DNA of 64,000 nt from Rosa chinensis (lineage: Eukaryota; Streptophyta; Magnoliopsida; Rosales; Rosaceae): the NCBI RefSeq assembly GCF_002994745.2, contig NC_037092.1, forward strand, positions 71,151,823 through 71,215,822. Reading direction: 5' to 3'. Of the stretch, positions 52,583 to 53,164 are shown one piece after another (the stretch's first letter is position 1; each line of letters begins with the position of its first letter). Made by a program: the position numbers and the translations under genes. The notes under the pieces are model-generated. The model was not told the DNA's origin, made no database searches, and saw only the letters and a program-made list of their open reading frames with translations.

Positions 52583-53164
52583 TCAGCGGCTCCGGAAACT
52601 TTTTTCAGCTTTGCCCTCGCAGGAAAGGCTGAGCTCAAGGGAAGTGTGAGAGCCACCACCGTGACCACCACCTCCATCGGAAGTAGTCCTCATGTTGCCA
52701 AAGATGTCCTCACTGTGCATGGGAAACAGTGGAAGGGTTTTAATCTCCTGGTGATCTTCTCCTCGTTGTTCCATGATGGATCCACCAACACCAGCAGAAC
52801 TAGTTGACCCAAAATTGAGATTAATGGATCCACCAACAAGCCCTGATCTTTGCTCGGGCACTTGAACATCCGAAGTGAGCTTCTTCTTCTTCAGCTTCTC
52901 CTGAGCCCTTTGGTTTTGGAACCAATAAAAGACGTTCTTGTTCTCGATCTGTCCGTACCATTTTAGCTGGAGAGTGATCCTCTGAACCTGCTCTACAGTG
53001 GGGGACTTAACTCCCTTGTCATCGTAAAGCTCCTTGAGGATTCTTATCTGATCTATAGTAGGAAGCCACCTGGTATTACTCTGCTTGCAATGCATGTTAG
53101 GACTACTCTCGGCTGCTTTGTTGCTTCCTCCATCCTCGGTTGGATGCTGGTTTTGTGGTTCCAT
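52583..53164 (-). CDS. WUS: WUSCHEL-like homeobox protein inside the retrotransposon, 193 aa
   Basis: This intact, intronless ORF encodes a WUS/WOX-type transcription factor. The N-terminus (MEPQ..., Gly/Asn/Ser-rich) is followed by the WOX homeodomain at residues 31-96: TRWLPTIDQIRILKELY, the enlarged WOX loop, and recognition helix NVFYWFQNQRAQEK at 78-90. A WUS box TLPLFPMH (143-150) and an EAR-like repression motif SLELSLS (175-181) complete the set of functional parts found in WUSCHEL itself. WUS normally is nuclear and maintains stem cells in meristems. WUS genes usually have introns and about 290 aa, so this copy is shortened between homeodomain and WUS box and looks processed. The helix deviates from the family consensus (FQNHKARERQ). 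A TATA-like ATTATAAAC lies about 100 bases upstream. Whether it is expressed is unknown. Confidence 0.9.
   Translation of the reverse strand: MEPQNQHPTEDGGSNKAAESSPNMHCKQSNTRWLPTIDQIRILKELYDDKGVKSPTVEQVQRITLQLKWYGQIENKNVFYWFQNQRAQEKLKKKKLTSDVQVPEQRSGLVGGSINLNFGSTSSAGVGGSIMEQRGEDHQEIKTLPLFPMHSEDIFGNMRTTSDGGGGHGGGSHTSLELSLSCEGKAEKSFRSR

What the first reader, a model, noticed from the sequence alone, without database searches (positions are those of the whole stretch)
52583..53164. Intact WUSCHEL-like homeobox gene captured by an LTR retrotransposon
A 193-aa ORF with WOX homeodomain, WUS box (TLPLFPMH) and EAR-like motif lies inside an 11.4-kb LTR element with perfect target duplications. It is uninterrupted and lacks introns, so it looks like a processed copy that has since stayed open. 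Retroelement capture of a stem-cell regulator, with all three functional parts kept, would be a way to disperse meristem-regulator genes or their antisense transcripts.
Basis: partly seen in the sequence, partly recalled or inferred. Interest (0 to 1): 0.93.

Follow-up and report, generated by a model that had tools for sequence, protein, structure and literature searches.

The report
Rose retrotransposon carrying captured WUSCHEL gene
A family of jumping genes in rose has picked up a spliced copy of WUSCHEL, the gene that keeps plant stem cells going, and has spread it over the genome as an extra backwards gene of its own.

Summary
A 193-codon WUS-type ORF (52583-53164, -) lies inside an 11.4-kb LTR element (LTRs 49069-50304 and 59205-60440, 99.1% identical, target duplication GCCGA). 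The rose host WUS gene has two introns; a full-length element-type copy lacks both at the exact junctions, runs from 221 nt upstream of the ATG to codon 292 and has no poly(A): a captured spliced RNA. Relatives of the element carry Tat-lineage Ty3/gypsy pol; the window copy has none. In that pol clade 31 of 36 loci have a listed WUS place just downstream, all antisense; in the sister clade 0 of 43 do. Searches list 194 WUS-like places besides the host gene. One element has LTRs identical over 1268 bp. Deep branches keep no stop codon (10.3 expected) although amino acids change at about the neutral rate; single family-A insertions decay neutrally. This gives a likely cause, shown for families A-C only, of the published, unexplained 381-member rose WOX expansion. 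Expression and function are untested. This copy also lacks host codons about 112-230 and a recognition-helix arginine.

The parts
49064..49068 (.). 5-bp target site duplication GCCGA, left copy
49069..50304 (+). 5' LTR, TGTTTG...CAAACA
   Evidence: 11 differences to the 3' LTR over 1237 aligned bp, K2P 0.009
50308..50325 (+). primer-binding-site-like stretch starting TGG, 3 nt after the 5' LTR; tRNA not identified
   Evidence: sequence inspection only
50404..51732 (+). 442-aa sense ORF in the gag position; no Pfam family above cut-off, 2 relatives found, both Rosa
52583..53164 (-). captured WUS-type ORF, 193 aa, intronless, antisense to the element
52883..53074 (-). WUS-type homeodomain, codons 31-94; R88Q at 52901-52903
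52715..52738 (-). WUS box TLPLFPMH
   Evidence: translation; five of its residues invariant in the 20-sequence alignment
52625..52639 (-). EAR-like LELSL
   Evidence: translation
53165..53293 (-). host-derived 5' UTR / core promoter region of WUS; TATAAA at 53265-53270 (exact TATAAA in 23 of 40 family-A copies)
   Evidence: host -144..-1 aligned at 80%
54833..55720 (-). 295-aa antisense ORF; no Pfam family above cut-off
55742..56059 (-). 105-aa antisense ORF, no Pfam family above cut-off
57129..58217 (-). plant mobile domain (PF10536) ORF, first part; in-frame stop at 57129-57131 in this copy
56454..57038 (-). plant mobile domain ORF, second part (weak match, below Pfam cut-off)
59191..59204 (+). 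polypurine-tract-like stretch with a G run just before the 3' LTR
59205..60440 (+). 3' LTR
60441..60445 (.). target site duplication GCCGA, right copy

Best explanation
This is one insertion of a rose Ty3/gypsy (Tat lineage, Ogre-like) LTR retrotransposon whose ancestor captured a spliced WUSCHEL RNA, most likely once, placed it in reverse orientation between pol and the 3' LTR, and has since carried it as an accessory antisense ORF. SHOWN: spliced origin, antisense position behind pol, presence throughout one pol clade and absence from the sister clade (against truncated WUS lists), sub-families A, B and C in the same LTR family, recent mobility of at least one copy, and an open frame on the deep branches of the sampled tree. 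INFERRED: during plus-strand synthesis the reverse transcriptase switched onto WUS mRNA near the 3' end of its CDS, copied it towards its 5' end and switched back, which gives the antisense orientation, the absence of poly(A) and the retained 5' region with a TATA-like motif. INFERRED: the ORF is transcribed antisense from that region, giving a small homeodomain + WUS-box + EAR protein that serves the element, most plausibly by acting in the shoot apex, the tissue that gives rise to the germ cells. Confidence about 0.93 for capture and carriage, about 0.5 that the protein does something for the element; the number below is for capture and carriage.
For: Host WUS at G000:C2:11711808-11713125 has 3 exons with GT-AG introns and an intact 299-aa CDS. 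L087 (C2) joins all three exons exactly; L088 (C3) and L089 (C7) join exons 2 and 3 exactly and lack intron 1 with a small deletion over that junction; all three end at the same host base. L087 matches the host to -221 and beyond that matches the window element (86% over 181 bp, 96% over 48 bp). Ten family-A copies were sampled: 9 of 10 have a recognisable 3' LTR, 6 of 10 a 5' LTR within 4.3 kb. The 4 without a near 5' LTR have pol-like open frames there; Pfam on 2 of the 4 gives RT, RNase H, RVT_3 and integrase. Five 5-bp target duplications: window and 4 others. 6 of 27 WUS places that I compared with the LTR list are bracketed by LTR pairs, all 6 antisense, in families A, B and C. Pol search: 31 of 36 loci at >=86% identity have a listed WUS place 0.5-3.3 kb downstream, 31 of 31 antisense; 0 of 43 at <=84%. 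Deep branches: no stop in 20 reconstructions against 10.3 expected.
Against: N/S within family A is near neutral (0.74-0.86 of a context-matched expectation) and dN/dS on deep branches is 1.3, not different from 1 (P 0.15), so amino acids are hardly constrained. 26 of 69 aligned sequences have in-frame stops. Copies were found by WUS similarity, and outside family A I fetched mostly copies without stops, which favours open frames. The LTRs are not enriched in WUS-type sites (TAAT 2 seen, 8.7 expected in the window LTR). No expression data here; the rose WOX paper reports 359 of 364 rose-specific WOX genes almost silent during rooting (PMC11405225, passages). The chromosome-2 family D was not shown to lie between LTRs. 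5 of 36 pol loci of the WUS clade have no partner in the lists. One WUS place (C2:72118459) has its nearest listed LTR 10.9 kb away in the same orientation.
Confidence: 0.93

Rival explanations
1. Captured passenger without function: WUS was carried along in a successful element and its ORF has no effect on element or host.
For: Near-neutral N/S within family A; family-A terminal branches gain stops at the neutral rate (22 seen, 20.0 expected); deep dN/dS not below 1; the pol-less window form still moved; almost no expression reported for rose-specific WOX genes in rooting (PMC11405225, passages).
Against: No stop on deep branches against 10.3 expected, P 3e-5, and 1 against 6.9 on internal branches within family A, P 0.008; ORFs without stops beside long open pol frames (1190-1194 codons) at 6 loci; zero indels in 11 aligned ORFs while 9 LTRs have 44 gap intervals. 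All of this carries ascertainment bias.
Confidence: 0.4
2. The element-borne WUS acts mainly as RNA: sense-antisense pairing and siRNAs from hundreds of copies silence or tune the host WUS gene.
For: WUS is antisense to the element's own transcript, so element transcription would give antisense WUS RNA; the homeodomain-coding half is still about 80-87% like the host.
Against: Divergence may be too high for efficient targeting; no small-RNA data available; a coding frame kept open on deep branches would not be needed.
Confidence: 0.12
3. The copies come from several independent captures or from DNA duplication of WUS rather than one event.
For: Families differ in helix 3 (WFQN, WFGN, WFVN) and family D has a long branch; the tail of family A shows no significant match to the flank of L087 or L089.
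Against: Introns absent; L087-L089 end at the same host base with similar next bases, D ends 2 nt earlier; A and C share the 3' flank; A and L087 share upstream element sequence.
Confidence: 0.06
4. Assembly artefact: LTRs and WUS brought together wrongly.
For: No read data here.
Against: Pol with antisense WUS recurs at 31 loci, target duplications differ at 5 sites, and the protein family is also annotated in R. rugosa.
Confidence: 0.01

Closest known systems
Tat-lineage Ty3/gypsy elements, Ogre/Retand type (Neumann 2019, PMC6317226, passages; Vicient 2025, PMC11963269, passages)
   Same: aRNH between RNase H and integrase, long POL-3'LTR region, antisense extra ORFs there, plant mobile domain ORF (reported in 57% of Ogre elements), 5-bp target duplications
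   Different: An antisense extra ORF here is a recognisable host gene, WUS, with a traceable source locus; the passages seen name no such case, and PMC11963269 leaves the origin of its antisense ORFs open
Orchid Gypsy elements with an acquired 2-ODD (m6A demethylase) domain (PMC9289625, passages)
   Same: Host-type domain acquired by a Gypsy lineage and kept through sub-family radiation
   Different: Different gene and lineage; activity of the orchid protein was shown in vitro
Rose WOX 'gene family expansion' (PMC11405225: section 3.2 and passages)
   Same: Same kind of sequences: 381 WOX genes, 364 in rose-only clades, 86.8% of these without UTRs; the printed clade V motif is that of family D here
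Cellular WUSCHEL (6ry3/6ryd; host gene L086)
   Same: Homeodomain fold, WUS box, EAR-like motif
   Different: Intronless, about 120 residues of the middle missing, tail replaced, helix-3 substitutions

Membership tests
LTR retrotransposon | two near-identical LTRs, TG..CA, target duplication | tested here: met
Tat lineage of Ty3/gypsy | second RNase H (aRNH/RVT_3) in pol, between RNase H and integrase for Ogre/Retand | tested here: met
   in relatives L023 and L037; no pol was found in the ORFs of the window copy tested
Ogre subclade | plant mobile domain extra ORF | tested here: met
   PF10536 E 1.1e-19; PMC6317226 gives PMD in 57% of Ogre elements, so suggestive, not diagnostic
Ogre subclade | RT phylogeny and PBS type | not tested
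   no reference RT set or tRNA comparison was made
Retand subclade | antisense Transposase_28 (PF04195) ORF | tested here: not met
   no PF04195 match in the 6 ORFs of the window element that were scanned
WUS/WOX homeodomain proteins | WUS-type homeodomain | tested here: met
WUS/WOX homeodomain proteins | WUS box and EAR-like motif | tested here: met
WUS/WOX homeodomain proteins | DNA binding and stem-cell activity | not testable with these tools
   R88Q in this copy; 37 of 41 family-A copies have an arginine codon there
Processed (spliced) gene copy | introns removed at host junctions | tested here: met
   both junctions exact in L087; junction 2 exact and intron 1 absent in L088, L089; in the window copy the junction regions are deleted
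LINE-type retropseudogene | poly(A) tail after the host 3' UTR | tested here: not met
   host homology stops 7 codons before the stop, no tail there

The most novel reading that the evidence does not exclude
A plant retrotransposon lineage uses a captured stem-cell master regulator as its own accessory gene: it makes a short WUS-like repressor from the antisense strand in the shoot apex, where germ-line precursors sit, and so raises its chance of transposing in cells that pass to the next generation. Rapid change of the DNA-reading helix (WFQN, WFGN, WFVN) with an open frame would then reflect adaptation to this new role.
Probability: 0.25. Interest if true: 0.95.

Novelty: new variant of a known kind. 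Interest (0 to 1): 0.82.

Why it matters
It gives a traceable example of how the antisense extra ORFs of Tat/Ogre-type elements can arise: by capture of a spliced host RNA. It offers a mobile-element cause for a published WOX expansion in rose that its authors could not explain, and warns against counting such copies as developmental genes. It places a large number of WUS-derived sequences, at least one in a very young insertion, into a crop genus in which flower and meristem traits are selected, and makes a clean test possible: WUS-bearing against WUS-free sister elements in the same genome.

Tried and rejected
LINE-type retropseudogene: rejected, end inside the CDS and no poly(A). Gag identity of the 442-aa ORF: no Pfam family above cut-off and two relatives only, both Rosa, one an annotation with an unrelated enzyme name. 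Self-regulation of LTRs by WUS-type sites: not supported; of five motifs in four LTRs only TTAATSS was raised, in 2 of 4 (P 0.02 each, uncorrected; motifs partly recalled). WUS-like loci in viral contigs: none confirmed. Tail of family A against L087 and L089: no significant similarity. WUS conserved above flanks was repeated on 40 copies because the first 11 were chosen by WUS identity; the contrast shrank to 0.041 against 0.055-0.095 for whole flank regions, and single flank bins are as low as 0.024. The first stop count flagged 2 deep stops that are within-codon path artefacts (counted as real they would give P 0.002); it also lumped changes of the host lineage with the deep branches. One search separates that stem, avoids the artefact and uses 20 random tie-breaks. 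The branch models had not converged (in 135 a constrained fit beat the free one) and are replaced. L066 was dropped for its aberrant branch; it was in 76 and 77. Codons 113-133 (linker) were left out of the codon models. Outside family A terminal branches also have few stops (5 against 14.8), as expected from my choice of mostly unbroken copies there. The PMD search of the own genome did not complete. Structure model: only the homeodomain is confident, mean pLDDT 62.

Full report
What is there. The window lies on G000:C5:71151823-71215822 of a 515-Mb genome. Lengths of contigs C2 and C7 (88,556,329 and 70,290,800 bp) equal those of contigs that carry proteins named Rosa chinensis; other contigs differ by a few kb, so I take it to be a version of the rose assembly. 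ORF 52583-53164 on the minus strand encodes 193 aa with a homeodomain (Pfam E 5.4e-11) whose nearest solved relative is WUSCHEL (E 2.6e-23). AlphaFold gives a confident homeodomain and low confidence elsewhere; Foldseek ranks WUS-HD entries first.

The element. LTRs 49069-50304 and 59205-60440 differ at 11 positions over the 1237 bp aligned and are flanked by GCCGA. A polypurine stretch before the right LTR and a TGG-starting stretch after the left one set the element on the plus strand. WUS, a 295-aa ORF, a 105-aa ORF and a plant-mobile-domain ORF (PF10536, E 1.1e-19, with an in-frame stop in this copy) run antisense; a 442-aa ORF runs sense. LTR divergence K 0.009 means about 0.34-0.64 million years at recalled rates of 1.3e-8 and 7e-9.

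Copies. Searches of the genome gave 213 matches from 150 scored of 693 candidates with the window ORF and 245 from 131 scored of 840 with the Argentina anserina WUS. The places printed in both, host gene left out, merge to 194, a lower bound. Family names A-D are mine. Of 60 ORF loci examined, 41 are ungapped full-length family-A members and 25 of these 41 have no in-frame stop. Ten further family-A elements were fetched in two parts each: 9 of 10 show a recognisable 3' LTR and 6 of 10 a 5' LTR within 4.3 kb. 5-bp target duplications were seen at 5 sites: the window and 4 others (L021/22, L025/26, L035/36, L039/40). One element has LTRs identical over 1268 bp, two others K 0.026 and 0.028.

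Pol. The four sampled elements without a near 5' LTR (L023, L027, L031, L037) have long pol-like frames there, in sense. Pfam on pieces of two of the four (L023, L037) gives RVT_1, RT_RNaseH, RVT_3, integrase zinc finger and rve. Two RNase H domains, the second between RNase H and integrase, are stated for Tat elements of the Ogre/Retand type (PMC6317226, passages), and PMD is reported there in 57% of Ogre elements. The LTR search scored 40 of 4145 candidates. I compared 27 WUS places, picked partly because LTR matches lay on the same contigs, with 36 of its rows: 6 places are bracketed, all antisense. Three, one each of families A, B and C, lie between LTRs 17.8-18.0 kb apart end to end; three, the window included, in elements of 7.8-12.7 kb. 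A search with 547 aa of pol returned 79 loci from 79 scored of 7715 candidates. Of 36 at 86% identity or more, 31 have a listed WUS place 0.5-3.3 kb downstream, all 31 antisense; of 43 at 84% or less, none. The WUS lists are truncated, so the 5 misses and the zero are relative to them. At six loci pol frames of 1190-1194 open codons, without a stop in the matched part, sit beside WUS ORFs listed without stops: L068, L072, L073, L074, L076, L084.

Origin. The rose WUS gene (L086) has three exons, GT-AG introns and a 299-aa product. L087 joins the three exons exactly. L088 and L089 join exons 2 and 3 exactly and lack intron 1 together with some exon bases at that junction. All three end at the same host base, 7 codons before the stop, and continue with similar non-host bases. 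L087 matches the host up to -221, including the TATA-like motif at -121, and beyond that matches the window element. So a spliced RNA, not a gene segment, was captured, without poly(A). Exact TATAAA is kept in 23 of 40 family-A copies. Plus-strand template switching is my inference from the orientation and the ends. Family C shares the 3' flank of family A; family A lost the middle of the protein. Family D, common on chromosome 2, ends 2 nt from the L087 end in the two copies tested, is intronless and shows weak similarity to the upstream region of L087 (69% over 193 columns, E 2e-13), but I could not test it for LTRs. In 17 copies compared, synonymous distance from the host is 0.14-0.30, and 0.44 in one D copy, so the capture is old within the rose lineage; R. 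rugosa has relatives.

Selection. In family A the N/S of all variants is slightly below a context-matched neutral expectation (N 138 seen, 150.2 expected, P 0.022; homeodomain N 35 seen, 45.8 expected, P 0.017; several tests, uncorrected). On a tree of 68 sequences (48 in family A), with the host stem set apart and 20 random tie-breaks, family-A terminal branches show 22 stop gains against 20.0 expected from their synonymous changes, i.e. neutral decay. Internal branches within A show 1 against 6.9 (P 0.008) and deep internal branches 0 against 10.3 (P 3e-5). N/S on deep branches (about 152/50) is higher than on family-A terminals (157/96, P 0.003) and not clearly above neutral (P 0.09). A converged branch model gives dN/dS 1.3 deep and 0.61 elsewhere in the elements (difference P 4e-4; deep against 1, P 0.15). 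The full-length copies differ among themselves with dN/dS 0.28 (L088-L089) and 0.43 (L087-L088). My reading: the frame was kept in replicating lineages while the protein, including helix 3, changed fast. Selecting mostly unbroken copies outside family A could hide lineages with shared stops, so this needs all copies. The window copy has R88Q, shared with 2 others of 41.

Literature. PMC11405225 (abstract, section 3.2 and passages) reports 381 rose WOX genes, 364 in rose-only clades, 170 in R. multiflora and 105 in R. rugosa, finds no collinear genes within rose, and asks for further evidence to explain the expansion; 'transpos' does not occur in its main text. The clade V motif it prints is that of family D, so most of its genes belong to the family whose vehicle I could not test. 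Its counts are low on chromosomes 4, 5 and 6, where A-C copies are common here, perhaps because annotation masked them. PMC8213826 (passages) lists a WUS orthogroup with 46 and 14 members in the two roses compared. PMC6786968 (term search of the main text) has no WUS, WOX or homeobox. Ten library searches (listings seen) showed no paper whose title or abstract start reports WUS capture by a retrotransposon; the other rose genome paper that I looked for is not held, so I do not claim it is unpublished.

Noticed in passing
window 38638-40476 (+): 612-aa ORF with an Exostosin GT47 domain (Pfam E 3.6e-87), probably an ordinary host glycosyltransferase gene.
   Followed up: partly
window 4776-5447 (+): 223-aa ORF with a reverse transcriptase fragment of the RVT_2 family.
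   Followed up: partly
window 41065-41136 (+): tRNA gene by Rfam (73 bits).
   Followed up: no
window 53337-53458 and 54623-54741: A 120-bp direct repeat (77%) inside the element, one copy upstream of WUS and one behind the 295-aa ORF; possibly left by template switching at the capture.
   Followed up: no
G000:C7:15790660, 15797668, 15804678: WUS-like copies with equal scores spaced 7 kb apart; L083, one of them, is family D, so part of family D may be amplified in tandem.
   Followed up: no
window 44824-45234: Tandem array with a 79-bp step, outside the element.
   Followed up: no
L087, L088, L089 and families B, C: Helix-3 position after WF changes from Q to G or V (WFGN, WFVN) in whole groups of copies, which could alter DNA reading.
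   Followed up: partly
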